Positions 2,402 to 18,052 of a stretch of 64,000 nt of DNA are shown here, piece after piece; positions within the stretch are counted from its first letter, which is position 1; each line of letters starts with the position of its first letter. The notes under the pieces were generated by a model, which saw only the letters and a program-made list of their open reading frames with translations, was not told the DNA's origin and did not search any database. The stretch comes from Sphingomonas morindae (GTDB lineage: Bacteria > Pseudomonadota > Alphaproteobacteria > Sphingomonadales > Sphingomonadaceae), in NCBI RefSeq assembly GCF_023822065.1, contig NZ_CP084930.1, positions 3,364,001 to 3,428,000 of the forward strand. Reading direction: 5' to 3'. The position numbers were made by a program, and so were the translations under genes.

Positions 2402-3238
2402 TCAGTCGTGAAACTCCAGCGCGGCGTAGAAGGCGTATCGTCCCGTCGCGGCGCGATGCTCGATCAGCGGGCCGCCCGAGCCGATCAGCGACCATTTCGG
2501 CGCGAACTGCCAGCTTGCCCCGAGGTCCAGGCCGGTGCTCGAGCGGGCATCGAAGGTATCGGCGGTCTGGTGGTAGATTTCGGTGCCGAGCGAAAGCGAC
2601 GGCGTCACCGCGCGCGTGACGGCCAGCCCGCCGAAGCCGTAATCGCGGTTGCCCAGACCGGGGTTGCGCGTCCAGCCGCCGCCACCGAACAGCGACCAGG
2701 CGCCGATATCCTTCTGCGCCCAGATCGGAATGGAGAAGCCGGCCCTGCCCGAACCGAAGCGCCGCCCGGCGGTGGGCAGCTCGATCTTGGGGAAGAGGCT
2801 GATATCGGGCAGCCAGCTTCCCGCGCGTTGATGGACCAGGCGGTATTTGGCGCCTAGTTCGGTGTCCGCCACGCCGACATGCGTTCCGGCGCCCGTCTGG
2901 CGAGCATAGGCGAGCGACACCACGGCGCTGAGCTGGAGATCCTTCGCACCGCCATAATTGATGTCGAACCCGCTGCCGCCCTGCTCGCCGCCGCGCACTA
3001 TCGTGCCCGATACGAAGGCATAGCTTTCCCACTTGCCGCGGTCGGTGGGCTCAGGATCGTCCGTGACATAGGGCGGCCCGGCCCGTGCGGGGACACAGGC
3101 CGAAACGGCCAGGGCGACCGCGCCGAGACGCTTCAGGCGTATCGGCACGCGCCTGATCGACGGACAGGCGCCCCCCTGTCCGGACCGCCCGGGCCCGGGC
3201 CCATAAGGGACTGAACCCACCCGATCTCTCCGCATCAC
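2402..3238 (-). CDS. predicted outer-membrane beta-barrel protein of unknown function
   Basis: A hydrophobic leader (LGAVALAVSACVPARA) is followed by the mature start GPPYVTDDPEPTDRGKWE, a signature of a conserved family of exported proteobacterial proteins annotated only as hypothetical or transporter-like. The remainder alternates aromatic and small residues with Gly-rich turns, as in a porin-type barrel, and ends in YAFYAALEFHD. The longest frame opens at 3238 with GTG-ATG. A GTG at 3148, just before the signal peptide, gives a more normal leader and is a credible true start. It is divergent from the response regulator at 3404. No function can be assigned. Confidence 0.7.
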   Translation of the reverse strand: MMRRDRVGSVPYGPGPGRSGQGGACPSIRRVPIRLKRLGAVALAVSACVPARAGPPYVTDDPEPTDRGKWESYAFVSGTIVRGGEQGGSGFDINYGGAKDLQLSAVVSLAYARQTGAGTHVGVADTELGAKYRLVHQRAGSWLPDISLFPKIELPTAGRRFGSGRAGFSIPIWAQKDIGAWSLFGGGGWTRNPGLGNRDYGFGGLAVTRAVTPSLSLGTEIYHQTADTFDARSSTGLDLGASWQFAPKWSLIGSGGPLIEHRAATGRYAFYAALEFHD

Positions 3239-3346: not shown

Positions 3347-3364
3347 TCTGACATCAATCTGTCA
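3347..3364 (+). promoter_or_regulatory. PHO-box-like 11-bp-spaced direct repeat upstream of the two-component genes
   Basis: CTGACAT, CAAT, CTGTCAC form two 7-base half-sites with an 11-base period, close to the E. coli PHO-box consensus (CTGTCAT-N4-CTGTCAC type). The site lies about 40 bases before the response regulator ATG at 3404. OmpR/PhoB-class regulators bind such tandem repeats, so this may be a PhoB site or the autoregulatory site of the adjacent regulator. Confidence 0.5.
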
Positions 3365-3403
3365 CGCAAGGCGACAAAGAAGCGGTCGAAGGGATCGCCA
3401 CCC

Positions 3404-4084
3404 ATGCACGTGCTCATCGTCGAAGACGATCAGGTCATCGCGGACCATATCGTATCGGGTCTCGGCCATGTCGGCTACCAGGCCACGCTGGCGCGCAGCG
3501 GGGCGGAGGCGATCAAGGCCTGGGCCGCCGGATCGCATCAGGCCGTGGTGCTCGATCGCATGCTGCCCGACATCGACGGCATGGCGGTGATCGATCATCT
3601 GCGCGCCGGCGGCGCCGACGTGCCGGTGCTGATGCTGAGCGCGCTGGGATCGGTCAAGAACCGGATCGAGGGGCTGCGGCGCGGCGCCGACGATTACCTC
3701 GCCAAGCCCTTCAGCATCGACGAGCTTGCCGCGCGGCTCGAGGCGATCGTCCGGCGCGCGTCGCAGCGGGGCGGCCGGAGCGGCCTCAGCATCGGGATGC
3801 TCGCGCTCGATGCCAGCAGCCTGCGCGCCACCTATCGAGGCGCCGCCGCGACGCTCAACCGCAAGCAATATTCGCTGCTCGCGCATCTCATGGGGCATGC
3901 CGACACGATCGTCACGCGCGCGATGCTGCTCGAAGCCGTCTGGTCCTATTCCTTCTCGACCGCGACCAACATCGTCGAGAGCAATATGAGCCGGCTGCGC
4001 ACGGCCCTGCAGGAGATCGGCTGCGATCCCATCGAGACACGGCGCGGCGCCGGGTATGTGTTGCGCTCGGATCGATGCGCCTGA
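3404..4084 (+). CDS. OmpR/PhoB-family response regulator
   Basis: A 226-residue protein with an N-terminal receiver domain (acidic pair EDD at 8-9, phospho-acceptor Asp51 in VVLDRMLPDIDG, conserved Lys in YLAKPFS) and a C-terminal winged helix ending in RRGAGYVLR. It resembles QseB/CzcR-type regulators. The open frame extends upstream to 3296, but the ATG at 3404 gives the canonical MHVLIVEDD start. The stop overlaps the kinase start at 4075 by ten bases, so the pair is translationally coupled. The downstream receptors and phosphatase are its most likely targets. Confidence 0.93.
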   Translation: MHVLIVEDDQVIADHIVSGLGHVGYQATLARSGAEAIKAWAAGSHQAVVLDRMLPDIDGMAVIDHLRAGGADVPVLMLSALGSVKNRIEGLRRGADDYLAKPFSIDELAARLEAIVRRASQRGGRSGLSIGMLALDASSLRATYRGAAATLNRKQYSLLAHLMGHADTIVTRAMLLEAVWSYSFSTATNIVESNMSRLRTALQEIGCDPIETRRGAGYVLRSDRCA

Positions 4085-5481
4085 CCCGTGGAGGCGCGCT
4101 GCCGCAGGCACCGCTCGGTCGGCTGGCGATCCAGTTCGGCTTCGCCTTCGCCGCCGCGATGATCGCGATCGGCCTGATCGGCTTCGGCGTCGCGGACCAT
4201 TGGGTGTCGCGCCGGATCGACCGGTCGCTCGCCTATCACGCCGACAAATATGTCTCGCGGGTCCGGAACGATCCGGCGGCGGACCAGCATCTGCGCGCCG
4301 CGATCGACGAATGGCAGCATCGCAAGGTGCTCAGCGAGCGGACCTATGTGCTGTTCGATCGGCACGGCCGACGGATCGCCGGGCGGTTGGACATCGCCCC
4401 GCCCCCACCCGGCTTCTCCTCCGTCCGCTTCACGGGCGGCGGCCGTCATCTCGAGGAAGGGCGCGCGCTCGCCAAGACGCTGCCCGGCGGCGGGCTGTTC
4501 GTCGTCGTCCAGCACAGCGAGGCCGCCGAGGGGCTGCACGCGATCCTGCCGACGGCGGTGGTGGCGATCTGCCTCGTGGCGCTGCTGCTCGGCGTCTCGG
4601 CGACGCTGTTGTTCGCGCGGCTGACCGCACGCCGCCTCGCCGAGACCCAGGCGGCCGCGTCGGCGATCGCGGCCGGCGATCTGAGCCGCCGGATCGCGAC
4701 CGACCGGCTCGACGGGATGTTCGCCGTCCAGGCCGAGAGCCTGAACCGAATGCTCGATCACATGGAGGATCTGGTGCGCGCGCAGCAGCTCTTCTCGAGC
4801 AACCTCGCGCATGATCTGCGCACGCCGCTGATGCGGCTGCGCAGCCTGCTGGACGCGGCCTCGCGCGACGACCGGGCGGCCATCGCCCCCTTGGTGGAGC
4901 GGGCGGAGCGCGAATGTTCGTCGATCATCGCGATCTTCGACGCGCTGCTCCGGCTCGCCGAGATCGAGACCGGGCAGCATCCGACCGCCATGGCCCCCGT
5001 GGCGCTCCGCCCGCTGCTGGAGGATATCGCCGATACGATGGAGCCGGTCCTCGCCGATCGCGGCGGCGGGCTCGACATCGGGCATATGGCCCCTGTCACC
5101 GTCATCGGCGACCCCGATCTTCTCTCCCAGCTGCTCATCAATCTGCTCGAAAATGTGGCGACGCACACGCCGCCCGGAACGCGGGTCACGCTGTCGCTCG
5201 AACGCGGCGGCGAGGATGCCGTCATCACCGTGCGGGATGACGGACCCGGCATGGCGTCGGTCGAGTTCGCGCGCGTGACGCGCCCCTTCGAGCGCGGCGC
5301 CGCCGCCTCCGACCGGAGGGGCAGCGGCCTCGGCCTGGCGATCGCCAGCGCCATCGCGCGCTTCCACCAAGGCCATCTGACACTCGTCGACGCGGCACCC
5401 GGTCTGGCGGTGCGGATCAGCCTTCCCGCCGTAGAGCCCTCCGTGCGTCGCGACGCCATGGCAGCGCTGCAGACCGCCTGA
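4075..5481 (+). CDS. sensor histidine kinase, partner of the OmpR-type regulator
   Basis: A 468-residue membrane kinase. TM1 spans about residues 20-40, a periplasmic region of about 110 residues follows, TM2 is near 160-182, then a HAMP linker. The HisKA phosphoacceptor is His246 in SNLAHDLRTPL. The HATPase_c domain has N-box LLINLLENVATH, G1 VRDDGPGM and G2 GSGLGLAIA. The short periplasmic domain has no recognisable ligand fold. The start overlaps the regulator stop. The receptors, phosphatase and propeller genes follow on the same strand, so the sensor probably reads a periplasmic nutrient or metal signal. Confidence 0.93.
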   Translation: MRLTRGGALPQAPLGRLAIQFGFAFAAAMIAIGLIGFGVADHWVSRRIDRSLAYHADKYVSRVRNDPAADQHLRAAIDEWQHRKVLSERTYVLFDRHGRRIAGRLDIAPPPPGFSSVRFTGGGRHLEEGRALAKTLPGGGLFVVVQHSEAAEGLHAILPTAVVAICLVALLLGVSATLLFARLTARRLAETQAAASAIAAGDLSRRIATDRLDGMFAVQAESLNRMLDHMEDLVRAQQLFSSNLAHDLRTPLMRLRSLLDAASRDDRAAIAPLVERAERECSSIIAIFDALLRLAEIETGQHPTAMAPVALRPLLEDIADTMEPVLADRGGGLDIGHMAPVTVIGDPDLLSQLLINLLENVATHTPPGTRVTLSLERGGEDAVITVRDDGPGMASVEFARVTRPFERGAAASDRRGSGLGLAIASAIARFHQGHLTLVDAAPGLAVRISLPAVEPSVRRDAMAALQTA

Positions 5482-5492
5482 TCGCACGCGCC

Positions 5493-5532
5493 CAACATTA
5501 CGGATTGGCAACCTCGCAGCCGTGCAATGTTG
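5493..5532. promoter_or_regulatory. inverted repeat in the receptor promoter region
   Basis: CAACATT at 5493-5499 and AATGTTG at 5526-5532 are exact inverted copies 26 bases apart, between the kinase stop (5481) and the receptor start (5615). A TTGGC/GCCAA inverted repeat also occurs near 11117-11130, ahead of the propeller gene. This suggests an operator within the block, but the regulator is unknown. Confidence 0.3.
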
Positions 5533-5614
5533 GCGGCGCTTTTCCACCACAAATGTCACGTGCCGTTCCTACCGCCAGGCCAACAGCTAACGGACTGTCA
5601 GGGGAACTCACAAG

Positions 5615-7900
5615 ATGACGGCCTTTACCGGGCAGCGGCCCGTCCGCCTCTTCGCGTCCGCGCTCGCCATGGCGGTTGCGCTCTCCAGCGCGGCGCACGC
5701 CGCCGACGCGCCGCCCGCGGCGCCGGACAATGGCATCGCCGAGGGTTCGGATATTCTGGTGACCGCGACCAAGGCGAACCAGATCGCCCCCGTCACCGCC
5801 TCGCTTCAGGAAACGCAGCCGGCCTCGATCGTGTCGCGCTCCTTCATCGAGGATTCGCTGCCCGCCAGCGCGGACTTCAACCAGATCGCGCTGATCGCGC
5901 CCTCGGTGAGCAATTCGGGGGCGACGAACGGCGTCGGCCTCAACGAATCCAAGACGCAGATCCGCGGCTTCCAGGACGGCGAATACAACATCACCTATGA
6001 TGGCGTGCCGTTCGGCGACACCAACGATCCGACGCACCATTCCAACACCTTCTTTCCCTCGAACACGATCGAGACGCTGGTGGTGGATCGCGGCCCCGGC
6101 AATGCCAGCCAGCTCGGCCAGGCGACGTTCGGCGGCAACATCAACATGTTCTCGCGCGAAACGCGCGCCGATCCGTCGCTGGAGCTGAAGGGCAATTACG
6201 GCAGCTTCAACACCTATCTGCTCCGCGGCGTCGCCCAGTCCGGCGCGATCAACCAGCTGGGTGGTGCCGAATTCGCCCTGTCCGGCCAGTATATCAAGAC
6301 GGATGGGCGGCTGACCTATTCGGGCTACAACCAGAAGAATATCTTCGGCAAGGCGGTGGTCCCCATCGGATCGAGCGTCAAGCTCACGCTATTGTCCACC
6401 TACAACAAGAACCATTTCAACCAGCCCGATAAGGATGGCTCGACCCTGCAGGAGGTCGCGGCGTTCGGCAAGAACTACAGCCTGAACAACGATCCGACGA
6501 ACCTCAGCTACTATAAATACAACGTCACCACCAAAACGACCGATTTCGAGATCGCCAAGCTGGATGCGGAGATCGCACCCAATTCGGTCTTCACCAATAC
6601 GGCCTATACCTATTATTACGACAATGAGACGCTGAGCGGCGCCAATGCCACGACGCTGCCGACCGGGGTGGTGAACCCGACCGGCGTCGTCCTCGCCGAC
6701 GGCAAGACCAAGGCGCCCGGCGTGCCCGGCTACACCAAGACCAACAAATATCGCGTCTGGGGCGACATTCCGAAGATCCGGCTGGACTTCGGCTTCGGCG
6801 CGCTGACCGCCGGCATCTGGCTGGAGCATAGCGATACCTTTCGCCAGCAGACCGACGTGAACCTGCTCAGCGGCGCGTTCAACTATTCGGAGAAGGTCGT
6901 CACCAACCCGGTGACCAAGGCCAAGACGCCGCAATATGTCAAGTTCAACCAGAATTCGCAGGGCAACCACAGCGAGGAATTTGTGGAGCTTGATCTGCGC
7001 CCGATCGAGGGCCTGACGATCACGCCCGGCTTCAAGCATGTCGATTTCGAGCGCAAGGTGGATGCGCTCTACAACCAGACGACGCGCTACGCCGAGAATT
7101 TCGGGCACGACTACCGGAAGAACCTGCCGTTCGCGACGATCAACTATGCGGTGACGCCGCAGGTCTCGGTCTATGGCGAATATGCCAAGGGCTTCCTCGC
7201 GCCGTCGCTGACCGTGCTCTACGTCGCCAGCCCCAACAATTCCACGGTGAAGCCGCAGACCTCGACCAACTACCAGGCCGGCGCGGTCTTCCACGGCTCG
7301 CGCCTCAGCCTCGATGCCGATGCCTATTACATCGACTTCAACAACAAGTTCCAGAGCCAGACGGTGACGCTGGCCGACGGCACCACCGACACCGCCTGGT
7401 ACAATCAGGGTGGCGTCATCTACAAGGGCGTGGAGGGGCAGGCGACCTATGTCCTCGGGCACGGCTTTGCCCTGTTCGCCAATGGCTCGCTCAATTACGC
7501 CAAGGAAAAGACCACGCATATCCAGGTCGCCAACGCGCCCAAGGGCACGGCGGCCGGCGGCATCCTCTACAAGGCCGGCCCGATCCGCTTCTCGCTGATC
7601 GATAAGTGGACGGGGCCGCAATATGCGATCGCCGAGACCTTCAATCCGGCGACCGGGCTCAACTCTCTGGATCGGCAGGTCAAGATCTCTTCGTACAATA
7701 CCGCGATCGTGGCGGCGAGCTATGAGTGGCGCAACCTGCGTGTCGGCGTGCAGGTGACGGACCTGTTCAACTCGACCAAGATCACCAATCTCGGCCTCTC
7801 CGGGGCGGGCCCGACGGCGACCAGCCTGAACGCCAATGCCGATCAGCTCTATTTCCAGCCCGGCCGCCAGATCAGCGGCGACATCACGGTGCGCTTCTGA
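5615..7900 (+). CDS. TonB-dependent outer-membrane receptor 1
   Basis: A 761-residue receptor: signal peptide (residues 1-29, ending SSAAHAA), TonB-box-like SDILVTATK, a plug domain with TQIRGFQDGEYNITYDGVPFG and the TFGGNINMFS segment, then a long beta-barrel ending in the aromatic ISGDITVRF. It lacks an N-terminal sigma-regulator signalling domain. A Shine-Dalgarno-like AGGGGAAC precedes the ATG. It is the first gene after the two-component pair, and its stop overlaps the phosphatase start (TGATG). The ligand is unknown. The linked periplasmic phosphatase suggests an organophosphate-derived or metal-phosphate ligand, which is an inference from context only. Confidence 0.93.
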   Translation: MTAFTGQRPVRLFASALAMAVALSSAAHAADAPPAAPDNGIAEGSDILVTATKANQIAPVTASLQETQPASIVSRSFIEDSLPASADFNQIALIAPSVSNSGATNGVGLNESKTQIRGFQDGEYNITYDGVPFGDTNDPTHHSNTFFPSNTIETLVVDRGPGNASQLGQATFGGNINMFSRETRADPSLELKGNYGSFNTYLLRGVAQSGAINQLGGAEFALSGQYIKTDGRLTYSGYNQKNIFGKAVVPIGSSVKLTLLSTYNKNHFNQPDKDGSTLQEVAAFGKNYSLNNDPTNLSYYKYNVTTKTTDFEIAKLDAEIAPNSVFTNTAYTYYYDNETLSGANATTLPTGVVNPTGVVLADGKTKAPGVPGYTKTNKYRVWGDIPKIRLDFGFGALTAGIWLEHSDTFRQQTDVNLLSGAFNYSEKVVTNPVTKAKTPQYVKFNQNSQGNHSEEFVELDLRPIEGLTITPGFKHVDFERKVDALYNQTTRYAENFGHDYRKNLPFATINYAVTPQVSVYGEYAKGFLAPSLTVLYVASPNNSTVKPQTSTNYQAGAVFHGSRLSLDADAYYIDFNNKFQSQTVTLADGTTDTAWYNQGGVIYKGVEGQATYVLGHGFALFANGSLNYAKEKTTHIQVANAPKGTAAGGILYKAGPIRFSLIDKWTGPQYAIAETFNPATGLNSLDRQVKISSYNTAIVAASYEWRNLRVGVQVTDLFNSTKITNLGLSGAGPTATSLNANADQLYFQPGRQISGDITVRF

Positions 7901-8589
7901 TGCGTCGCCTCCTGCTCGTCGCCGCGGCCACGATGCTGGTCGCGGCGAAGCATGCACCGGACGGGCCGCTGCTGCTCGGCCCCGCCACGCTCGATCCGGC
8001 CTTGCTGCTGCCGCCCGCGCCGCGCGACGACAGCGCGGCCGGCCGCGCGGAGCTGGCCATGCTCCACCAGATCGACCGGACCCGCACGCCGGAGGAGATC
8101 GCGCACGCGAAGGCGGATGGCGAGACCAAGAATGTCACCATCTTCGCCGCGGTGATGGGGCCGGGCTTCGATCCCGAGCGGCTGCCCGCGACCAAGGCGC
8201 TGTTCCACACGGTGCGCGAGGAGGAGAAGGCGGCGGTCGACCGCGCCAAGGATCATTTCCGGCGCAACCGGCCGTGGATCACCGATAGCACCCTCCATCC
8301 CTGTTCCACCAACGACGAGCCGCAGAGCAGCTATCCGAGCGGCCATACCTCGATGGGCTATGCGATGGCGGCGATCCTGGCCCGTCTCGAACCTTCCAAA
8401 GCGCCCGCGATCCTGGCGCGCGCCGCCGATTATGCGCACAGCCGGCTCGTCTGCGAGGTGCATTTCCCCGGCGATATCGCGGCGGGGCAGGCCTATGGTA
8501 TGATGATCGCCGAGCGGCTGATGGCGCAGCCCGCCTTCCGCGCCTCCTTCCAGGCCGCGCAGGCCGAACTGCGCGCCGCGGGCCTCTAA
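7900..8589 (+). CDS. class A non-specific acid phosphatase (PAP2 superfamily)
   Basis: A 229-residue exported enzyme with all three catalytic motifs of the PAP2/class A acid phosphatase family: KDHFRRNRP (KX6RP), SYPSGHTS (PSGH) and SRLVCEVHFPGD (SRX5HX3D). A hydrophobic leader at residues 1-17 indicates periplasmic location. It should release phosphate from diverse monoesters through a phosphohistidine intermediate. The frame opens further upstream at 7726, but the ATG at 7900 overlaps the receptor stop by one base and places the signal peptide correctly. Position between two TonB receptors suggests it processes material imported through, or scavenged near, the outer membrane. Confidence 0.92.
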   Translation: MRRLLLVAAATMLVAAKHAPDGPLLLGPATLDPALLLPPAPRDDSAAGRAELAMLHQIDRTRTPEEIAHAKADGETKNVTIFAAVMGPGFDPERLPATKALFHTVREEEKAAVDRAKDHFRRNRPWITDSTLHPCSTNDEPQSSYPSGHTSMGYAMAAILARLEPSKAPAILARAADYAHSRLVCEVHFPGDIAAGQAYGMMIAERLMAQPAFRASFQAAQAELRAAGL

Positions 8590-8616: not shown

Positions 8617-11100
8617 GTGAAAATCGGATCATGGACGCGGCTCGGCGTCGCGGCGTTCGCGCTCATGTCGAGCCAGGCGGTGGCCGCGCCGCAGCCGGCG
8701 CACCACCATGCGAAGCGCGATTGCGACGATGACGACGATGGCTGCCCGGCGGCCGCCCGGCCGCCGCAGCCGCGCAGGGCGCGTTCCTCGGCCGCGCCGC
8801 AGCCGGCGCATCCTCAGCCGAAACCCGATTGCGACGATGACGACGATGATTGCCCGGTGGCCGCCCGGCCGCCGCAGCCGCGCGAGACGCCGGCCGCCAC
8901 CCCGGCGCCCGCGCCGCGCGGGGCGGACGCGGCGCTCCCATCGGGTCTGACGCCGCCGGCCATCGTCGCGCCGATCGCCAATCCGCCGGCCGTCGCCGTC
9001 AAACCCGCCAAGGACGATGACGATGACGACGAGGGCGATGGAGACGACCGCGCACGGACCGGCGCCATCACCGTCACCGCGCGCCGGCTGGACAGCGCGC
9101 GCGCCAGCGTCAACCCGAGCCTCGGCGCGTCGAGCTATGCGCTCAGCAACGATGCCATCGAGAAGCGCCCGGGTGGCGAGGCGGCGAGCCTCGCCAGCGT
9201 GCTGGTCCAGATGCCCGGCGTCACCCAGGCCGGCGCGGGCGAAATCCGCGTGCGCGGGCAAAGCGCGCTGCAATATCGCATCAACAACGTCATCGTTCCC
9301 GACGGCTTCAGCGATCTGGCGGACACGCTGCGCGCGCGCTTCGCCGATCGGGTCGAGCTCGTCACCGGCGCGCTGCCCGCGCAATATGGCCTCCAGACGG
9401 GCGGCGTCATCAACGTCACGACCAAGAGCGGCGCCTATGGCAAGGGCGGCGAGGCGGAGCTGTACGGCGGCACCCAGGGCCGCTTCGAGCCCGCCTTCGA
9501 TGCGATGGGCGCGATCGGCCGCACCAACTATTATCTTTCCGGCTCCTACCAGCGCGGCGACGCGGCGACGGGCGGGGCCGACGCCTCGGCCAATCCGCTT
9601 CACGATCATGGCGAGCAGCTGGATGGCTTCGCCTATTTCGATCGCATCCTCGACGCGCAGTCGCGCCTGTCGCTGATCCTCGGCGCCTTCGACGATCGGC
9701 TCGATCTGCCCCATGCGCGCGGGCTCAACGCGGCCAGCTATCGCGACGATGCGCCTTTCGAGCGCCCGCTCACGGTGGCGGGGATCTCCTCCTATCCGAG
9801 CGAGGCCTGGGGCGGCCATCAGCGGCTTGGCAGCGACTATGGCCTCCTCTCCTACCAGCATGGCAGCGGCGCGCTGACGATGCAGCTATCGGGCTTTCTG
9901 CGCCGCTCCTCGCTGGCGCTGAGGGCGGACCCGATCGGCGATCTGCTGTTCACCGGCCTCGCCAGCTCGGTCACGAGCCGCAGCCTGGCCGGCGGCGTTC
10001 AGGCCGAAGCGCTCTATGCCGCCGCTCCGCGCCACCAGATCCGCGCGGGGGTCACCGCCGACTGGTCGCGCGACCGCAGCCGCAGCGCCTATGCCGTGCT
10101 TCCCCTCGACGGCGCCGGGCGGCCCGTGTCCGACACTCCGCTGGTCGTGCCCGCCATCGAGCGCGACCGGCGACGCGAGCAGGGGCTGTTCGTCGAGGAT
10201 GAATGGCGGCCGGCGGACCGGCTCAGCGTCAATGCCGGGCTGCGCTTCGATCATGTCGCGGGGCCGGGCGGCGGCCACGCGCTCGGCCCGCGGATCAATA
10301 GCGTGTGGCGGCCCGCGGACGAGACCAGCCTGCATATCGGCTATGCGCGCTATTTCGTGCCCGCGCCCGAAGCGGTGGGGATAGCCTCGGCGCGCGCGCT
10401 GACGGGCACGACCGGGAGCTGGCCCACCACGACGGAGACTGCGCCCAAGCCCGAGCGTGACGACTATCTCGACGCTGGCGTGGAGCAGAGGCTAAATCGG
10501 CTGACGATCGGGCTCGACGCCTATTGGCGCCGCGCGCGCGATCTGCTGGACGCCGTGCGGATCGGCGCGACCGTGCTGGCGCGGCCCTTTAATTACCGGA
10601 TCGGACGGGCCTGGGGCGTGGAAACGCGCGCGATCTACGCGGCCGGGCCGGTTTCGGCCTGGGCGAACCTGACGGTCGCCAGCCTGCGCGGGCGCGCGAT
10701 CGTCACGGGCCAGGCGCCGTTCACCGCGGCCCAGCTCGCCTGGAGCGCGGCGCACTCGATCCGCGCGAACAGCGATCAGCGTCTTTCGGGTTCGCTCGGG
10801 CTGACCTGGCGGCACGGACGCCTCCAATTGTCCGGGGACGGCGTGTTCGGCAGCGGCCTGCCCAGACGCTCCGGCGACCTCACGCCCAATGGCGCCAGCG
10901 TGCCGGCCTATGCCCAGGCCAATGTCGCGGCGGTCTACCGCCTCGACGGCCTTGGCCGCCGCCCGCTGAGCGCGCGCCTCGATCTGCTCAACATTTTCGA
11001 CAATCGCAGTGCCCTGCAGGACGGCACGTCGCTTGCGGACGGCACCGCGCAATGGCGCGCGCCGCGCAGCCTGTTCGTCGGTCTGGAGCAGGCATTCTGA
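8617..11100 (+). CDS. TonB-dependent receptor 2 with a poly-Asp/Cys N-terminal extension
   Basis: An 827-residue protein starting at GTG 8617 with a signal peptide (cleavage near SQAVA). Residues about 23-94 are two 36-residue tandem repeats, each with a Cys-flanked Asp tract. A third acidic tract with six consecutive Asp lies near residues 130-145. Then come TonB-box-like GAITVTARR, a plug (GEIRVRGQSALQY, TGGVINVTTKSG) and a barrel ending RSLFVGLEQAF. Typical receptors have only a short linker before the plug, so this extension of about 120 residues is unusual. It looks suited to binding a hard cation or a cationic ligand in the periplasm. It lies 27 bases after the phosphatase stop, in the same operon. 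Confidence 0.9.
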   Translation: MKIGSWTRLGVAAFALMSSQAVAAPQPAHHHAKRDCDDDDDGCPAAARPPQPRRARSSAAPQPAHPQPKPDCDDDDDDCPVAARPPQPRETPAATPAPAPRGADAALPSGLTPPAIVAPIANPPAVAVKPAKDDDDDDEGDGDDRARTGAITVTARRLDSARASVNPSLGASSYALSNDAIEKRPGGEAASLASVLVQMPGVTQAGAGEIRVRGQSALQYRINNVIVPDGFSDLADTLRARFADRVELVTGALPAQYGLQTGGVINVTTKSGAYGKGGEAELYGGTQGRFEPAFDAMGAIGRTNYYLSGSYQRGDAATGGADASANPLHDHGEQLDGFAYFDRILDAQSRLSLILGAFDDRLDLPHARGLNAASYRDDAPFERPLTVAGISSYPSEAWGGHQRLGSDYGLLSYQHGSGALTMQLSGFLRRSSLALRADPIGDLLFTGLASSVTSRSLAGGVQAEALYAAAPRHQIRAGVTADWSRDRSRSAYAVLPLDGAGRPVSDTPLVVPAIERDRRREQGLFVEDEWRPADRLSVNAGLRFDHVAGPGGGHALGPRINSVWRPADETSLHIGYARYFVPAPEAVGIASARALTGTTGSWPTTTETAPKPERDDYLDAGVEQRLNRLTIGLDAYWRRARDLLDAVRIGATVLARPFNYRIGRAWGVETRAIYAAGPVSAWANLTVASLRGRAIVTGQAPFTAAQLAWSAAHSIRANSDQRLSGSLGLTWRHGRLQLSGDGVFGSGLPRRSGDLTPNGASVPAYAQANVAAVYRLDGLGRRPLSARLDLLNIFDNRSALQDGTSLADGTAQWRAPRSLFVGLEQAF
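8683..8898 (+). repeat. two tandem 108-bp in-frame repeats encoding Asp/Cys modules
   Basis: 8683-8790 and 8791-8898 are adjacent 36-codon units starting at AAPQPA. Each contains a DC(D)5-6 tract closed by CP, then ARPPQPR. Differences between the copies preserve the Asp and Cys residues, which suggests selection on the acidic Cys-bounded loop rather than fresh slippage. Confidence 0.9.
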
Positions 11101-11195: not shown

Positions 11196-12218
11196 ATGCG
11201 TCTCTTCTCCCGGAAGCTTGGATTGATGGCGCTCTGCCTGACGCTCGCGCTCGAAAGCGCGGCCGCGCCGCCGCGCCCGGCCTTCGTCAAGGCCGGGATC
11301 CTCCATGCCGCCGATGATGGCTGGGATATTGCGAGCTGGGATCGGCCGCACGGACGGCTGCTCATCGCCCATGGCAAGGACGTGCTGGTGATCGATCCCG
11401 CCCGCCAGGGGCAGGTGCGCGCGATCGGGCGGATCGACCATGCCCATGGCGTGGCGGCCATTCCCGGCACCGACACGCTCCTCGTCAGCAGCGCACGCGA
11501 TAATACGGTGCGCATCCTGGACGAGAGCAACGGCGCCGAGCTGGCGCGCATTCCGGTGGGTGCCGATCCCGACGCCACGATCCTATCCGCCGACGGCGCC
11601 ACGGCCTATGTGATGGACTCCGATGGTGGCGCGGTCTCGGAGATCGATCTCAGGCGCCGCGTCGAGCGCCGCCGCATTCCGCTCAAGCCGGGTCTCGAAT
11701 TCCCCGTGCTCGCCTCCCCCGCCCTGCTCGCCGTCAACAACGAGACCGCCAGCGAGATCGATCTGGTCGACCTCGCCGCGGGACAGGCCGCCGGCCGCAT
11801 CCCCTTGCCTGGCTGCGAGGGTCCGACGGGGATGGCCTATGATCCCGAGGCCGGGCTGGCGCTCAGCGCCTGCGGCAATGGCAAGGCCGCGCTGGTCGAT
11901 CTCGAGGCCAGGCGCGTGGTGCGCCTTCTCCCGATCGGGCTCGGCCCGGACACCGCGATCTGGGACGAGGCACACCACCGTTTTCTCATCCCCTGCGGCA
12001 AGAGCGGGACGCTCTCGATCATCGACATGGCGGGGCGCACGCCGACCGAAGAACCGGCGATCATGACCGAGCCGAGCGCGCGCACCGCCGCGCTCGATCC
12101 GGACACGGGCCGCCTCTATATGCCCGCGGCGCAATTCGGTCCGGCCGTGCCGCCGGCGCGCCACGGGCCGATCGTGCCCGGCAGCTTCCATATCCTCGTG
12201 ATGGCACCGGGCGCATGA
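11196..12218 (+). CDS. secreted YncE-like beta-propeller protein
   Basis: A 340-residue protein with a signal peptide (residues 1-24, MALCLTLALESAAA) and repeated propeller strands such as RIDHAHGVAAIPGTDTLLV, VRILDESNGAELARIPVG and GKAALVDLEARRVVRLLPIG. These match YncE/YVTN-type seven-blade propellers. The ATG at 11196 has AGGAG at 11183-11187. The frame is open upstream to 11052, but those residues do not fit. The gene follows receptor 2 by 95 bases and is probably co-regulated. YncE-type proteins often sit next to TonB receptors in proteobacteria; their biochemical role is poorly defined. It may bind a ligand or stabilise receptor cargo. Confidence 0.82.
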   Translation: MRLFSRKLGLMALCLTLALESAAAPPRPAFVKAGILHAADDGWDIASWDRPHGRLLIAHGKDVLVIDPARQGQVRAIGRIDHAHGVAAIPGTDTLLVSSARDNTVRILDESNGAELARIPVGADPDATILSADGATAYVMDSDGGAVSEIDLRRRVERRRIPLKPGLEFPVLASPALLAVNNETASEIDLVDLAAGQAAGRIPLPGCEGPTGMAYDPEAGLALSACGNGKAALVDLEARRVVRLLPIGLGPDTAIWDEAHHRFLIPCGKSGTLSIIDMAGRTPTEEPAIMTEPSARTAALDPDTGRLYMPAAQFGPAVPPARHGPIVPGSFHILVMAPGA

Positions 12219-12242: not shown

Positions 12243-13055
12243 ATGATGGACGACGCGCGCAACACCATGGCCAAGGTTCCGGCGGTCACGCTCGGCTTCT
12301 GGATCATCAAGATCCTGTGCACCACGCTGGGCGAAACCGGCGGCGATGCGGTGACGATGAGCTGGCTGGGCGAAACCACGCCGGCGGCCCAGCAGAGCTG
12401 GTTCAACGGCTATCTCGTCGGCACCACGCTGTTCGGCGTGCTGCTCGCGGTGCTCGTCTGGCTGCAGGTACGCGCGCGCCGATTCCATCCATGGCTCTAC
12501 TGGGCGACGATCGTCGCGTCGACGACGGCGGGCACGACGCTGGCGGACTTTGCCGACCGGTCGCTCGGCATCGGTTATCCGGGCGGCAGTCTGCTGCTGC
12601 TCGCCTGCGTGCTGGGCACGCTTCTCGCATGGCACCGGACGCTGGGAACCGTATCGGTCGCCTCGGTCCGCGAGCCGCGCGCGGAGCTGTTCTACTGGCT
12701 GACGATCACCTTCTCCCAGACCCTCGGCACCGCGCTGGGCGACTGGATCGCCGATGCCGGCCTCGGCTATTCCGGCGGCGCGCTGGTCTTCGGCGCGGCG
12801 CTGCTGGTGCTGCTCGCGCTCTATGTCTGGACCGGCGTCAGCCGCGTCGCTCTGTTCTGGGGCGCCTTCATCCTGACGCGGCCGCTCGGCGCCACCGTGG
12901 GCGATTTCCTCGACAAGCCCCTCGCGAGCGGCGGTCTCGATGTCAGCCGCCCGATCGCCACGCTCGTGCTCGCCGCCGCGATCATCCTGCTGATCGCGCT
13001 GCTCCCGCAACGCGCCGGCGGCCATCCCGGCGATCATGCCCGCTCGGACCTCTGA
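12243..13055 (+). CDS. COG4705-like integral membrane protein
   Basis: A 270-residue multi-helix membrane protein with four repeated TxLGxxxxD-type motifs: TTLGETGGDA, GTTLADFADRS, QTLGTALGDW and RPLGATVGDFLDK. This internal-repeat pattern is typical of the COG4705 'membrane-anchored protein' family. Each repeat ends with conserved Gly-Asp pairs inside or next to a membrane segment, which could form a polar ion path. Family function is not established. It is the last gene of the two-component/TonB block, 24 bases after the propeller gene. An ion-transport or sensory accessory role is an inference from the conserved buried acidic residues and location. Confidence 0.75.
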   Translation: MMDDARNTMAKVPAVTLGFWIIKILCTTLGETGGDAVTMSWLGETTPAAQQSWFNGYLVGTTLFGVLLAVLVWLQVRARRFHPWLYWATIVASTTAGTTLADFADRSLGIGYPGGSLLLLACVLGTLLAWHRTLGTVSVASVREPRAELFYWLTITFSQTLGTALGDWIADAGLGYSGGALVFGAALLVLLALYVWTGVSRVALFWGAFILTRPLGATVGDFLDKPLASGGLDVSRPIATLVLAAAIILLIALLPQRAGGHPGDHARSDL

Positions 13056-13327: not shown

Positions 13328-13732
13328 AGGCGGTGAACGGCCTCACCAATATAGCGCGGTCGGCGCCAACGCGCCGAGCTTCCTCTCGGGCGGCGACCAG
13401 CTGGTCGCCGAATATGACGCATCGGGCGCGATGCTCCGGCGCTATGTGCATGGCAGTGATGAGGACGATCCGCTGGTCTGGTACGAGGGCAGCGGCCTTG
13501 GCGTCCGTCGCTTTCTCCACGCCGATCACCAGGGCTCGATCGTCGCGATCAGCACACCCGCCGGCGCGCTCGCGATCAACACCTATGACGAATATGGCAT
13601 CCCAGGCCTCACCAGTCGCGGCCGCTTTCGCCACACCGGGCAAGCCTGGATCCCTGAGCTCGGCCTCTACCACTATAAGGCGCGCGCCTACTCGCCTACG
13701 CTCGGCCGCTTCTTGCAGACGGACCCGATCGG
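13328..13732 (+). pseudogene. Rhs-repeat core remnant
   Basis: The translation has YVHGSDEDDPLVWYEG, FLHADHQGSIVAI, and the canonical end of the Rhs core, GLYHYKARAYSPTLGRFLQTDPIG. The N-terminal portion of a normal Rhs protein (usually more than 1,000 residues) is missing. A further frame change near 13350 separates VNGL from the downstream YSAVGANAPSFL. At 13731-13734 one base is missing after the PIG codons, so the expected YKDQLNLYAYVANDP continues in another frame. This is the broken carrier of the toxin tip that follows. Confidence 0.85.
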
Positions 13733-14356
13733 TATAAGGATCAGCTTAATCTTTATGCGTATGTCGCAAATGATCCGGTCAATAAGAATGATCCCACGGG
13801 CCAGTCGTGGCAACAGGTCTGGGATGTCGTTGCCGGAACGGGCGAAGTCGCTGCTGGCGCTGTCGGCGGTGTTGTAGGTGGGATCGGTCTAGCCGGTAGT
13901 GGCATCGCTGAGATCGGTAGCGGCGGTCTGTCTACTCCGATCTCGATACCTGGCGCTGCCGGCTCGATCGGACTGATCACTATCTCAGCAGGAGCTGCTA
14001 GTGATGGCGCGCGGCGCATTGAAGGCGCCCTTACCGGCAGTGGAAAACCTTCCACGCTGGAGCCTGGCCCTCATGCCGGAGCGTCGATCCCTGCGAGAGG
14101 CCCGGATCGGAATTTCACGCCAGGAGAGCGAGAGCAAATCAACCAGATTGGTCGCGATACCGGTTGTCACTTGTGTGGTTCGAAAGACCCTGGAACACGG
14201 TCTGGCAATTTCGTGCCTGACCAGGCGCCGCCATCTGCAACAGCAGCGCCAGGGCAGTCGCAGAATCTATATCCTCACTGCATAAGCTGTAGCCGTCAGC
14301 AAGGCGGCGAAGTGAGGCAGCAGCAACCAATTAGGAAGCCGGAAGATGCAAACTGA
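13733..14356 (+). pseudogene. Rhs C-terminal toxin domain (Cys/His, HNH-like) left out of frame with its core
   Basis: Reading from 13733, the frame gives YKDQLNLYAYVANDPVNKNDPTGQ, the end of the Rhs core. A Gly/Ala-rich linker follows, possibly membrane-active (GAVGGVVGGIGLAGSGIA). The tip carries GCHLCGSKDPG, SGNFVPDQAPP and LYPHCISCSRQQGGEV. The paired CxxC motifs with a conserved GNFVPDxxPP segment resemble zinc-supported HNH-type nuclease tips of polymorphic toxins. The family assignment is from motif memory, not a search. There is no start codon of its own near 13733. The stop at 14354-14356 overlaps the next gene by 11 bases. The toxin-specific part is less GC-rich than its neighbours, a sign of recent exchange. 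Confidence 0.75.
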
Positions 14357-14705
14357 AATCTCCATTCAGCCAGCTAATTCGATAATATTTATCTCTGACA
14401 TCGAGTTTATGAACGAGGTTCCTGGCGATCCATCTGGCAATGTCATCACGGCTTCGAAAAAAGCTATTTCGGTATGGACGATGCCGGATATTGACGGACC
14501 GACTAAGGTGGGAATCTATAATTTAGATGAAATCGATGATTGTGAATTTGATGGCGAGATTCTTTCTCCATCAGGTGAAATAGTTGTTTCGAGTTCGGAG
14601 AAGGAAATCTTCCTTCGGAAGATTGTTGATCAGAATTGGGCTAGAATAAAGATTAAACTAAATGATAAAAAAGAGCCGGATTATATTCGCATAGCCATAG
14701 GATAA
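14346..14705 (+). CDS. putative immunity protein for the Rhs toxin
   Basis: A 119-residue acidic protein whose ATG overlaps the toxin stop by 11 bases, the standard position for a polymorphic-toxin immunity gene. Composition is strikingly AT-rich compared with the surrounding DNA (runs such as aaaaaa, taatttagatgaaatc), which is typical of laterally moved toxin/immunity tips. It is small, soluble and rich in Asp/Glu/Ile with no signal peptide, so it would act in the cytoplasm. I do not recognise the family. The function is inferred from position and composition. Confidence 0.65.
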   Translation: MQTEISIQPANSIIFISDIEFMNEVPGDPSGNVITASKKAISVWTMPDIDGPTKVGIYNLDEIDDCEFDGEILSPSGEIVVSSSEKEIFLRKIVDQNWARIKIKLNDKKEPDYIRIAIG

Positions 14706-14706
14706 T

Positions 14707-14739
14707 GCATGATATCCGAATATTATTCGGATCTCATGC
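14707..14739. terminator. hairpin after the immunity gene
   Basis: A 15-base stem (14707-14721 with 14725-14739) has one mismatch and a 3-base ATT loop, and begins two bases after the immunity stop. It overlaps the stop region of the convergent relaxase fragment, so it can serve both strands. Confidence 0.7.
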
Positions 14740-15360
14740 GACATTTACAGAATTGTTGACGATAATCATCGTGTTATCTGTGTATTTGTTTTGATCGTGT
14801 GCCCGCGTCTCGTCGAGCGCCCCGGCCTGGCTGCCGTCACGCAGCCCGAGGGCCTCGATGAGGCTGGGTCGGCTGTCGGTGTAGAGTGTGGCGCCTGATC
14901 GCGCCCTGCTGATCGCGACATAGGCGGAGGTGGCATCGACGGTATTGACGCGGAAGCTCTCCAGATGCGCCATGACCCGATCGGCCGTGGCGCCTTGAGC
15001 GCTGTGGATGGTCTGGAGCCAGCCCGGCCGGATGTGGCGATCGGCGAGGCGTCGCAGGTCGAGCGCCTGGGTGGCGCCGTCGGGCATGGCGATCGTCATG
15101 CCGGCGCGCTCGGGATCGACGCCGAGCACAGTCGCGACCATGCTGTTGAGCCGCTCGGCCTTGCGGTTGTTGCGGGCGAACTGAACTCGATCGCCGGCCC
15201 GAAACTCCACCTGCGTCTCGGTGAACGCCTCGGCATGATCGGCGCCCCATCGGAAGGGGGACCAGAGGACGGCCTTGCCCTTGGGGCCGCGGAGGCGGAC
15301 GTGGTGCTGGCCGACCTGATCGACAGTGTAGCCGGTGCCGGGCATGATCCCGAGCCGCTT
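14734..15360 (-). pseudogene. C-terminal fragment of a MobF/TraI-type relaxase-helicase
   Basis: About 200 residues match the helicase end of TraI/TrwC proteins: FTETQVEFRAGDRVQFARNN, the LHSAQG-like IHSAQGATADRV motif, and YVAISRARSGATLYTD (UvrD-type motif VI). The relaxase domain and helicase motifs I-IV are absent. The homology begins abruptly near 15360 (KRLGIMPG), and the open frame upstream is non-homologous filler. The gene was cut off by a rearrangement, so this plasmid-transfer enzyme is non-functional. Confidence 0.8.
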
Positions 15361-15703
15361 CGATTGCTGTCGAAAGCTGCAACCGCCGCCCCATTCAGCT
15401 CCCCGGCGACCTGTACCGGATGCTGGCGTTCGCGGAGAGGTTGTACGCCAGACGCACGGAAGCCCCAGGCCATGAGGTCTGGGGCTTTGGTGGATTTGGT
15501 TGCGGGGGCCTGCACTGGACGGCGTAACACTGTTTTCGCCATAGACATATGAGGGGCCTGCTCCGGTGCGGGCCCCCTCACGTCCAGCGTCTCCTACGCT
15601 CCACAAATACGGGGCCGGGGGACAGGATGGCAAACTGTCCCTTAACCAGAATCCGCCTTTTCCATGCTGAATGCATGATTGTGCACGAGAATGAGGAGGG
15701 AAA

Positions 15704-15805
15704 ATGAGAGAAGTAGCAGGAACGCGCAGCATGCGCGAAGCAGGCTCAGCTGTGGCCCGAAAAGCTCAGGGTGTGATGGAAGTTGGGAAAGTCTGCGCGG
15801 CTTAA
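15704..15805 (+). CDS. possible 33-residue small protein
   Basis: An ATG at 15704 is preceded by a strong Shine-Dalgarno (GAGGAGGG, 15692-15700). The frame runs 33 residues, begins MREVAGTRSMREAG and ends KVCAA. A weak stem (TCGC-TTTA-GCGA) followed by a run of seven T near 15851-15858 could terminate transcription. There is no recognisable domain. The good ribosome site and T tract are the only evidence. Confidence 0.3.
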   Translation: MREVAGTRSMREAGSAVARKAQGVMEVGKVCAA

Positions 15806-15899
15806 CGGATTGGTAAGCCTTGTCCGGTACTCGCTTTAGCGAAGCTCTTCTTTTTTTCCTCCCTCCTGCCCTGCTCAATCCTGGTTCTTGCAGGCAGAG

Positions 15900-15926
15900 C
15901 TCGCACCGGCGTTACGCCGGTGCGAG
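15900..15926. other. perfect 12-bp hairpin
   Basis: The arms 15900-15911 and 15915-15926 are exact inverted copies with a TTA loop. There is no T tract on either side. It may be part of the transcription end of the minus-strand plasmid gene cluster or an ancestral recombination or replication site. Confidence 0.5.
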
Positions 15927-15937
15927 CGAGGGGCGCC

Positions 15938-15958
15938 TGCGACCCGTTCAGGGTCGCA
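15938..15958 (-). terminator. hairpin at the end of the plasmid-gene operon
   Basis: An 8-base stem (15938-15945 with 15951-15958) has a 5-base loop and includes the last codons of the minus-strand gene ending at 15948. With the adjacent 12-bp hairpin it likely ends the operon transcribed from 19014 leftward. Confidence 0.5.
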
Positions 15959-16418
15959 ACACGACGACATCGCGCGTGGCCGGCTCGGTAGCCGCGCTCC
16001 GAGCCAGCTCCTGCAGGCGGGCGCGAGCGCGCCTGAGGCCAGGCCGCGGGTCCTTCGCGACCTTGCCCGCGCTGTGGGCAAGTTCGTCACGATCGAACCG
16101 GATGAACCCGCGACCGCCCTGCCGGTCGACGATGGCGCCAACGCCGTCATCCTCGGGCGCCCAGAGGGCGCCGTTGAGGCGGACGTGAACCATGGGTCCG
16201 CGAGGAAAGACGCATTGGACGCCGGTCGGCCCTGCAGCGAGATCGCTGCCGAAAGCCAGATAGACGATGTCGAGGTCAGCAGCACGGGCGGCGCGCCCAA
16301 GATCGGCGAACTGCTCCAGGCGCAGGCTGGGTCCTGCGAGGATGGCGAGCTCAGGCGCGGTCTCGCCGCCGGTCAGCAGCTGACGGGCGGCGGCGATGAA
16401 GAGCGGCATCGTGGTCAT
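15948..16418 (-). CDS. plasmid-associated protein of unknown function
   Basis: A 156-residue soluble protein starting MTTMPLFIAAARQLLTGG. It includes LDIVYLAFGSDLAAGPTG and ends with a helical Arg-rich tail (GLRRARARLQELARSAA). I do not recognise the family. It is last in a minus-strand cluster with a MobA/MobL relaxase 24 bases upstream, so a role in plasmid maintenance or transfer is likely. Confidence 0.6.
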   Translation of the reverse strand: MTTMPLFIAAARQLLTGGETAPELAILAGPSLRLEQFADLGRAARAADLDIVYLAFGSDLAAGPTGVQCVFPRGPMVHVRLNGALWAPEDDGVGAIVDRQGGRGFIRFDRDELAHSAGKVAKDPRPGLRRARARLQELARSAATEPATRDVVVLRP

Positions 16419-16442
16419 CTTTGTTCCTTCCTTGTTTTCCCT

Positions 16443-17219
16443 TCACTCCGAAGGGCACTTCCTCTCCTTTCTGATCCTCTGGCTCGGCCGGCGGCGGGTC
16501 CGCTGGGCGGGGCGCCTGCAGCGGTTTGTCGGCTGTGATCCGAACAAGGCGGCGAGTGCGCTGCAGTCGGGGTACGCAGGCGCAAAACTGCCGACCCGGT
16601 ATGGGCTGGTCGCGGCCGCCTGCATGTCGGCTGGAAGGCGGGACAGCCACTGGCTGTGCAGCTGCTCCGTCATGGCCGGCCCGCACCAGTTGGCGACCGT
16701 CCGGCCATGGCTGGCGGTATGCCGCCACTGGCGCGTGGTCAGCAGCAGATGCGCGTGCGGCGGAGGTGCCACAGCCTGCCCCTCTGGCGAGGCGTGGATG
16801 GCCCATGCGACTGCTGGTCCGTGGCGTGCCACGGCGGCGGCATAGCCGCGCACCATGGTGATCCACTCGGCAGTGGAGGCCTCCGCCGGCAGCGTGACGA
16901 CGACATGCCAGGCCCGGATCTGATCGTCGCCAAGCTGCTGCGTCGCCTCATCGAGCTCGCGCCACACCCTTCCCTCCTCCTCCGCCCAGGCGGGATGGTT
17001 GGAGGGCAGCGCCAGGCCATGGGCGACAAGGTCGGTGCGGTGGCGGTAGTCGACAGGCCCCCGTGCGTCTGTGCCGGCGCTGCGGATGATGTAGAGATAG
17101 TTGGCGGTCGCACTGCGATGCGTGCCGCGGCGATCTCCTGGCATGGCCCGCCAGCCCCGCACCGAGATGGGACGAATGGACACGGGGCGGCGGAAATGGA
17201 GAGGCAGAGTGTCGGTCAT
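16443..17219 (-). CDS. MobA/MobL-type relaxase
   Basis: About 258 residues. The core features of a MobQ/MobA-MobL relaxase are visible: an N-terminal ANYLYIIRSAG strand, RIRAWHVVVTLP-like ending in AWHVVVTLPAEAS, and the metal-binding PPHAHLLLTTR motif (HxH). It ends in a basic Arg-rich tail. These enzymes nick the origin of transfer of mobilizable plasmids. The frame is open to 17291, but the ATG at 17219 gives MTDTLPLHFRRP, a better start. It is shorter than full-length MobA, so it may lack a C-terminal primase or helicase part. No oriT was identified. Confidence 0.72.
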   Translation of the reverse strand: MTDTLPLHFRRPVSIRPISVRGWRAMPGDRRGTHRSATANYLYIIRSAGTDARGPVDYRHRTDLVAHGLALPSNHPAWAEEEGRVWRELDEATQQLGDDQIRAWHVVVTLPAEASTAEWITMVRGYAAAVARHGPAVAWAIHASPEGQAVAPPPHAHLLLTTRQWRHTASHGRTVANWCGPAMTEQLHSQWLSRLPADMQAAATSPYRVGSFAPAYPDCSALAALFGSQPTNRCRRPAQRTRRRPSQRIRKERKCPSE

Positions 17220-17320
17220 GTTGATGCTTTCAAGACGCGGCAGGCCGAACAAGGCGGCGCACGGGATCAAGGCCGATGCACGCGCGTGCATCGGCGTGGC
17301 GATCTGGAAGGAGTGGGTCG

Positions 17321-17968: not shown

Positions 17969-18052
17969 TGAGGTTTCCCGTCAGGATGGAAGCCGGCCGC
18001 CACCGGGCGATCAGCTTCGGTTCGTGCGATGTTGGGCGTGTGACAGCGCGCC

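What the first reader, a model, noticed from the sequence alone, without database searches (positions are those of the whole stretch)
8617..9060. TonB receptor with a tandem Cys-bounded poly-aspartate module before the plug
Seen directly: two 36-residue repeats (residues 23-58 and 59-94), each with five or six consecutive Asp closed by Cys on both sides, then a third six-Asp run just before the TonB box. Normal receptors have only a short linker there. The differences between copies spare the Asp and Cys. Inference: a periplasmic loop built to bind a hard cation (calcium, lanthanide, uranyl, aluminium or ferric) or a polycationic ligand, or a redox-gated acidic gate, working with the adjacent acid phosphatase and two-component pair. 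I know of no described receptor class with this module.
Basis: partly seen in the sequence, partly recalled or inferred. Interest (0 to 1): 0.78.

Follow-up and report, generated by a model that had tools for sequence, protein, structure and literature searches.

The report
Metal-linked receptor with aspartate-rich tail
An outer-membrane uptake receptor belongs to a small branch of metal-associated receptors that share a cluster of acidic residues just before the site where the energising protein TonB binds; in this bacterium the cluster has been multiplied and, uniquely among those compared, framed by cysteines.

Summary
The receptor at 8617-11100 has a 108-nt tandem repeat (84% identical) carrying C-DDDDD-G-C and C-DDDDDD-C, plus a third D6 run before the TonB box; its only four cysteines are those four.

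The acidic cluster marks one receptor clade (9 of 58 tree rows, one change, support 100/100). Within 25 residues before the box, clade members reach 4-6 acidic residues in six, the 49 sister rows 0-3; a member found later, outside model and tree, has HHDDDDDDDDDGH. The cysteines were found only in the window protein.

Half of the sister upstream regions carry a Zur-type zinc operator (24 of 48 valid); none of 10 clade members does. Clade genes instead sit beside two-component pairs (6 of 11 loci) and, in seven loci, copper, cation-efflux, cupredoxin or DUF347 genes. A 10-base element recurs only in the regulator-receptor spacer of four loci among those fetched.

Best reading: a metal-homeostasis receptor whose disordered periplasmic arm captures or buffers cations beside the TonB box. 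Cation binding is inferred; TonB docking and a neutral spacer are rivals. The Cys redox gate is unsupported.

The parts
8617..11100 (+). TonB-dependent receptor of the acidic-tract clade (TBDR2), 827 aa
   Evidence: Pfam Plug 5.3e-6 and TonB_dep_Rec_b-barrel 5.7e-23, both above cut-off; AF2 barrel and plug
8682..8789 (+). tandem repeat copy 1 (residues 23-58)
8790..8897 (+). tandem repeat copy 2 (residues 59-94), 84% identical to copy 1
8722..8745 (+). C36-DDDDDG-C43
8830..8853 (+). C72-DDDDDD-C79
9013..9030 (+). third Asp run (residues 133-138), in the place where the other clade members have their acidic cluster
9064..9081 (+). TonB box AITVTA (residues 150-155), inferred by alignment
7900..8589 (+). 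PAP2-family phosphatase (start inferred; the open frame begins at 7726), 27 nt upstream of the receptor
   Evidence: PF01569 4.9e-15; acid phosphatase PhoC model 7.6e-22, 78 bits against a cut-off of 430
5615..7900 (+). second TonB-dependent receptor (TBDR1), kept beside the phosphatase in S. vulcanisoli and N. lentum
3404..4084 (+). OmpR-type response regulator (start inferred)
4075..5481 (+). sensor histidine kinase
11196..12218 (+). beta-propeller-like protein (start inferred; TIGR03866 match 80 bits, cut-off 287)
12243..13055 (+). DUF347 membrane protein
   Evidence: PF03988 6.1e-54
2402..3238 (-). protein without Pfam match, linked to the cluster also in S. vulcanisoli (69%)
3348..3365 (+). 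Pho-box-like direct repeat upstream of the response regulator, 1 mismatch (consensus recalled); weak evidence

Best explanation
The gene encodes a TonB-dependent receptor of a clade that branches beside a family which is probably, in good part, Zur-controlled and zinc-scavenging. The clade has a disordered, Asp-rich (in several members also His-bearing) periplasmic arm directly before the TonB box. I think the receptor works in metal homeostasis and that the arm catches or buffers cations (most likely zinc, copper or a similar divalent metal) as they leave the channel or while TonB is engaged. In the window lineage the arm was lengthened by a 108-nt tandem duplication and has two C-X6-C loops, which in the oxidising periplasm could close as small acidic disulfide loops. 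Shown here: the clade, the conserved acidic cluster, the predicted disorder, the difference in regulatory and gene context. Inferred: cation binding, the metal, and what the arm does during transport.
For: Acidic cluster: highest number of acidic residues in any six of the last 25 before the box is 4-6 in 9 of 9 clade rows, 6 in the later-found member, 6 in fragment L053, and 0-3 in 49 of 49 sister rows. One origin on the tree, 100/100, 0 of 500 label shuffles as low (rows began at the TonB box, so the trait's columns were not in the tree). A member in neither model nor tree has nine Asp between His residues. The clade proteins share only 43-61% overall identity with the window protein and the linker does not align. 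Disorder: residues 1-155 pLDDT under 50. Metal and two-component neighbours. A 10-base element found, among 174 loci, only in the regulator-receptor spacer of L044, L045, L049 and L174 and in two shorter loci covering the same places. Sister branch: Zur-type boxes in 24 of 48 valid upstream regions, NikR, MerC and Fur-type neighbours in a Polymorphobacter relative, in line with the Zur-controlled receptors ZnuK/L/M of C. crescentus (PMC4176598, passages). DUF347 has been proposed as a metal exporter acting with a co-expressed phosphatase under lead stress in Frankia (PMC4531530, passages).
Against: No binding data. By plain count of acidic residues in the last 25 the groups overlap: the two weakest clade rows (L050, L051) have 4, as many as or fewer than 8 of 49 sister rows (4-6), and these two have no run of four. 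L048 and L053 show no metal neighbour (L048's locus holds about 245 bases upstream) and L044 only the two-component pair. The first neighbour queries came from acidic loci, which favours them; a second set taken from sister-family plasmids finds MerC or Fur genes in 2 of 26 sister loci and 1 of 10 acidic loci, so metal context is not exclusive to the clade. Neighbouring metals differ between loci. The window's own cluster may be phosphate-related. The repeat copies differ mostly by residue-changing codons.
Confidence: 0.5

Rival explanations
1. The acidic tract is an electrostatic docking aid: it recruits the basic, proline-rich stretch of TonB to the neighbouring TonB box and has nothing to do with metal.
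For: Its constant place is just before the TonB box; polyanions attract Lys/Pro-rich segments (general knowledge).
Against: The genome has 5 TonB_C matches, none in this window, serving 61 other plug-domain matches, none of which holds a D5 run (by coordinates); of 30 examined, 24 were read correctly and none has a run of four acidic residues in the 160 residues before the plug. A general docking aid should not be confined to one metal-linked clade.
Confidence: 0.2
2. A polar spacer kept soluble by charge: the run only keeps the mature N-terminus disordered and exposed, and its exact chemistry is neutral; copy number drifts by tandem duplication.
For: Copies differ mainly by residue-changing codons; run number varies from 1 to 3 within the clade and two members have only DADGDD; the linker between runs does not align.
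Against: A dense acidic cluster is kept in all 9 clade rows over long branches and in a later-found member, and in none of 49 sister rows.
Confidence: 0.2
3. Phosphate reading: the cluster is a phosphate-ester scavenging unit (TBDR1, PAP2 phosphatase, PhoB-like control) and the acidic receptor handles the cations that come in with, or are released from, phosphate-ester complexes.
For: TBDR1-PAP2 pair in window, S. vulcanisoli and N. lentum; Pho-box-like 11-base direct repeats upstream of TBDR1 in L038 (4 half-sites 25 of 28, six shuffles gave maxima 17-21) and L050 (21 of 28, shuffles 17-18), and a 1-mismatch box upstream of the regulator in the window.
Against: With up to 3 mismatches the two-half-site pattern is not clearly commoner than in dinucleotide shuffles: window 10 found, 10.9 expected; L038 4 and 2.6; L050 5 and 2.9. 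The window box scores 13 of 14, reached by one of six shuffles; L050 is ordinary with three half-sites (15, shuffles 14-15). Eight of 11 acidic loci show no phosphatase match. No phytase family was matched by the propeller.
Confidence: 0.13
4. One reading: a Cys-bounded, redox-gated acidic loop for a hard cation.
For: All four Cys of the protein, and no other, frame the two acid runs.
Against: No other clade member examined has Cys in its mature tract; the repeat differences do not significantly spare Cys and Asp (p = 0.22).
Confidence: 0.07

Closest known systems
Zur-regulated zinc receptors ZnuK/ZnuL/ZnuM of Caulobacter crescentus (PMC4176598)
   Same: TonB-dependent; about half of the sister-branch regions carry a Zur-type box like those printed for these genes, so the clade may descend from receptors of this kind.
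   Different: Homology to ZnuK/L/M themselves was not tested. The acidic clade has no such box (0 of 10) and has two-component or metal-related neighbours and the acidic arm.
ZnuD, the neisserial zinc receptor (PMC2895646)
   Same: A receptor with His/Asp-rich stretches brought together by a cysteine pair, proposed to bind zinc (passages).
   Different: In ZnuD they lie in extracellular loop 3; here the tract is periplasmic and N-terminal. ZnuD is not among the 4 sequences of the PDB search.
OprC, copper receptor of Pseudomonas aeruginosa (PMC8610252)
   Same: TonB-dependent barrel fold (Foldseek rank 12, E 1.5e-25, 16% identity), ionic metal.
   Different: OprC binds copper by CxxxM-HxM in plug and barrel (passages); the window protein has no Cys there.
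BugA, zinc-inducible TonB-dependent importer of C. crescentus (PMC12864828)
   Same: Precedent for a receptor induced by zinc, in a study of metal- and envelope-stress two-component signalling (passages).
   Different: No sequence comparison made; the passages read do not mention an acidic arm of BugA nor state which regulator controls it.
PqqU/YncD
   Same: Nearest solved fold (9c4o, 17% identity) and best PDB sequence match (1.6e-5).
   Different: PqqU family model scores 26.3 bits against a cut-off of 1200.

Membership tests
TonB-dependent receptor | plug plus beta-barrel, TonB box, signal peptide | tested here: met
   Pfam Plug and barrel above cut-off; AF2 fold and Foldseek; TonB box by alignment; signal peptide by eye only
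Acidic-tract clade (defined here) | dense acidic cluster before the TonB box and placement in the clade | tested here: met
Zur-regulated zinc receptor | Zur-type box upstream | tested here: not met
   best match has 6 mismatches in 12 specified positions upstream of the window gene; the region upstream of the whole gene cluster was not scanned for this box
OprC/NosA copper receptor | CxxxM-HxM metal site in plug and barrel | tested here: not met
   no Cys outside residues 36-79
ZnuD zinc receptor | His/Asp-rich extracellular loop 3 with a cysteine pair | tested here: not met
   no Cys in the barrel
PqqU receptor | NF041535 equivalog score above cut-off | tested here: not met
   26.3 bits against 1200
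Cation-binding protein segment | measured cation binding | not testable with these tools
   needs titration

The most novel reading that the evidence does not exclude
A receptor class in which a disordered polyanionic periplasmic arm, placed beside the TonB box, takes over metal from the opened channel; it arose when a zinc-deficiency (Zur) receptor was rewired to two-component, metal-excess control, and in the window lineage it acquired disulfide-closable acidic loops together with a tandem duplication.
Probability: 0.2. Interest if true: 0.72.

Novelty: new variant of a known kind. Interest (0 to 1): 0.5.

Why it matters
How metals are kept safe after passing a TonB-dependent channel, and why some bacteria place such receptors beside metal-stress circuits, is little known. 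A sharply defined clade with one conserved added feature, several named carriers (Novosphingobium rosa, N. lentum, Sphingomonas vulcanisoli, S. glacialis) and a candidate operator makes both questions testable with small peptides and gene deletions.

Tried and rejected
Cys-bounded module as a class: rejected, no relative examined has it. Sparing of Asp/Cys between repeat copies: not significant. Structure neighbours: Foldseek gives many receptor kinds at similar scores, so it does not name a substrate. UzcR half-sites in the window spacers: looked for by eye only, no convincing site. Cupredoxin partner in the window genome: no match (that call had no positive control). Neighbour control: the first query set came from acidic loci; a locus whose hits are only to its own genes (L046) is left out of the leave-one-out count (7 of 10). 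The Fisher value (1.4e-5, 7 of 10 against 0 of 26) ignores two weak response-regulator matches in sister loci L118 and L123. Receptor control: 30 of 61 plug loci examined; judged by eye the script took the wrong strand in 6 (L135, L136, L137, L142, L148, L152), so only 24 count. Zur-box control: 56 sister loci were listed, 7 with identical upstream regions fell out, and row L009 had a faulty region (contig end), leaving 48 valid rows; many are near relatives, so 24 of 48 is not 24 events. Acidic label: set by eye before the tree; the density measure was made afterwards and agrees with it. The query of the genome-contig scan (A2) was built from two acidic-clade receptors, so favours the clade. 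In some searches at most 2 candidates per genome were scored, so members in genomes with many receptors could be missed.

Literature searches for an acidic or poly-Asp arm in TonB-dependent receptors (15, 10, 0 and 15 papers listed of 42, 10, 0 and 52) showed none by title or abstract apart from the ZnuD loop, read as passages; only open-licence PMC papers are held.

Full report
WHAT IS THERE. The ORF at 8617-11100 (+) encodes an 827-residue TonB-dependent receptor (Plug and barrel domains; AF2 barrel, mean pLDDT 69.7). After a likely signal peptide come two tandem 36-residue copies (108 nt, 84% identical) with C36-DDDDDG-C43 and C72-DDDDDD-C79, then a Pro/Ala-rich linker, then D133-138 and the TonB box at 150. 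The four Cys are the only ones in the protein. Residues 1-155 have pLDDT under 50: a disordered arm.

THE ACIDIC CLUSTER MARKS A CLADE. Among 199 genomes of the family 60 gave a match, most of them weak; the strong relatives are 35-46% identical. In the genus 9 of 10 genomes gave a match; apart from the window genome's own, the strong ones are sister-type receptors of 36-41% identity without poly-Asp. The genome-contig scan, whose query was built from the window and S. vulcanisoli receptors, returned 11 loci. Eight full-length receptors at 41-63% identity and one fragment (L053, 53%) carry acidic residues just before the TonB box: REEB22 and N. rosa two clusters, S. glacialis three, the others one. 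Two of them (N. lentum L050, GL140 L051) have only DADGDD. The two remaining loci (L052, L054) are a sister-type receptor and a remote match. Of 62 family rows 58 went into the tree; dropped were L055 and L056 (partial copies of the window gene), L053 (fragment) and L103 (distant). The 9 rows labelled acidic form one clade, support 100/100, one change, 0 of 500 shuffled labelings as low; rows began at the TonB box, so the trait did not build the tree. Measured afterwards, the densest six residues of the last 25 before the box hold 4-6 acidic residues in 9 of 9 clade rows and 0-3 in 49 of 49 sister rows; by plain count the groups overlap (clade 4-10, sisters 0-6). The later order-wide scan (4 of 396 genomes above a strict cut-off) found a member that was in neither the model nor the tree: a second receptor (939 bits, 54% identical) in the genome that also holds the L045 protein and is therefore taken as N. 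rosa. It has HHDDDDDDDDDGH before the box and no Cys in the tract. The clade is rare: in the samples of the family (397 genomes) only the window genome and S. vulcanisoli score as members, in the class sample (385) only the window genome, with at most 2 candidates per genome scored.

CYSTEINES ARE PRIVATE. No other clade protein examined has Cys in the mature tract; the Cys seen before the box in L038 and L051 lie, by my reading, in the signal peptide or in an over-long open frame. So acidity is what is conserved; the C-X6-C frames are known from this one protein.

GENE CONTEXT. The window cluster reads response regulator, kinase, TBDR1, PAP2 phosphatase, this receptor, beta-propeller, DUF347, all on +. 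S. vulcanisoli keeps the regulator, kinase, TBDR1, phosphatase, DUF347 and the minus-strand gene at 67-72% identity, the propeller at 30% and the receptor at 46%, with the receptor on the other side of the regulator and a cupredoxin beside it. N. lentum has receptor, cupredoxin, TBDR1, PAP2; GL140 has receptor and cupredoxin. REEB22, both N. rosa loci and S. glacialis have a divergent two-component pair next to the receptor, so 6 of 11 loci have such a pair. S. glacialis adds CopC, CopD, a copper-type P-ATPase, a MerR regulator and a cation-efflux protein, one N. rosa locus a MerR-like regulator and cation efflux, and MAG L046 an ArsP-type permease, a metal-sensitive repressor (PF02583) and a protein that only by eye looks like CopB (no Pfam or NCBIfam match). 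In all, 8 of 10 acidic loci have at least one such neighbour, 7 of 10 after removal of self-matches, against 2 weak regulator matches in 26 sister loci. A query set drawn from sister-family plasmids finds MerC or Fur genes in 2 of 26 sister loci and 1 of 10 acidic loci, so the whole family leans to metals.

REGULATION. Zur-type boxes (consensus mine, from sites printed in PMC4176598) lie upstream of 24 of 48 valid sister regions at two mismatches or fewer and of 0 of 10 acidic-clade receptors. The element ACTGCCTTAA occurs in 6 of 174 fetched loci; these represent four places, because L171 repeats L045 and L172 lies within L174, and all are in the regulator-receptor spacer. Its resemblance to a PmrA-type box is recalled; the S. 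glacialis regulator's best NCBIfam model is PmrA, below cut-off. The clade thus seems to have changed from Zur to two-component control. Pho-box-like repeats precede TBDR1 in S. vulcanisoli and, more weakly, in N. lentum, and one lies upstream of the window regulator; the plain pattern count is not clearly above chance in any of the three.

MECHANISM. Shown: a disordered arm with a conserved acidic cluster, in a metal-associated receptor clade, next to the TonB box. Inferred: that it binds metal. His beside the Asp runs in several members (N. rosa HHAHADHDDDDDD and HHD9GH, window PAHHHAKRDC) fits a His/Asp metal site as proposed for the ZnuD loop (PMC2895646, passages). Why beside the TonB box: metal leaving the channel would meet the arm first. 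A TonB-docking role cannot be excluded, but the 61 other plug-domain matches of the genome hold no D5 run, and there are only 5 TonB_C matches, none in this window.

NOVELTY. I found no account of such an arm (open-licence papers only, judged from listings). I rate it a new variant of a known kind.

PAPERS. Passages only were read of PMC4531530, PMC2895646, PMC8963506, PMC4176598, PMC8610252 and PMC12864828; all others were seen as search listings.

On recounting I added the sister control, the negative Pho-pattern counts, the two weak clade members and the limits, and lowered the phosphate rival slightly (0.15 to 0.13) because of the pattern counts.

Noticed in passing
window 3348-3365; L038 9722-9772 (-); L050 10661-10711 (+): Pho-box-like direct repeats with 11-base period upstream of the regulator (window) or of TBDR1 (S. 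vulcanisoli, N. lentum), hinting at phosphate control of the TBDR1-phosphatase unit; strong only in L038.
   Followed up: partly
sister-family receptors, e.g. L016, L081, L099, L100, L115, L167, L169: Perfect TGTTAY-N3-RTAACA palindromes upstream of 7 sister receptors, in Alphaproteobacteria and a Paraburkholderia plasmid: perhaps a widespread Zur-type zinc receptor family. An NCBIfam scan of 13 proteins (9 clade, 4 sister) matched only general receptor models.
   Followed up: partly
L168 (Bradyrhizobium plasmid pCW1_1): A sister-family receptor gene directly followed by exbB, exbD and a TonB-family gene and preceded by a DUF2946 gene.
   Followed up: no
L038 14269-14616 (-), L050 10244-10567 (-), L051 10128-10439 (-): A small cupredoxin-like gene (PF13473 confirmed for L038 and L051), itself acidic (DDFDSDDLHVDKD-like loop), lies convergent to the acidic-clade receptor in three loci; no match in the window genome.
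   Followed up: partly
window 5482-5614 and L038 11923-12114: Shared GCAATGTTGGC-containing element in the TBDR1 upstream spacer of the window and in the regulator-receptor spacer of S. vulcanisoli, seen by eye.
   Followed up: no
window 13431-18000: Just downstream of the cluster lie short open frames that look by eye like an Rhs/YD-repeat fragment and mobile-element genes; no search was run on them.
   Followed up: no
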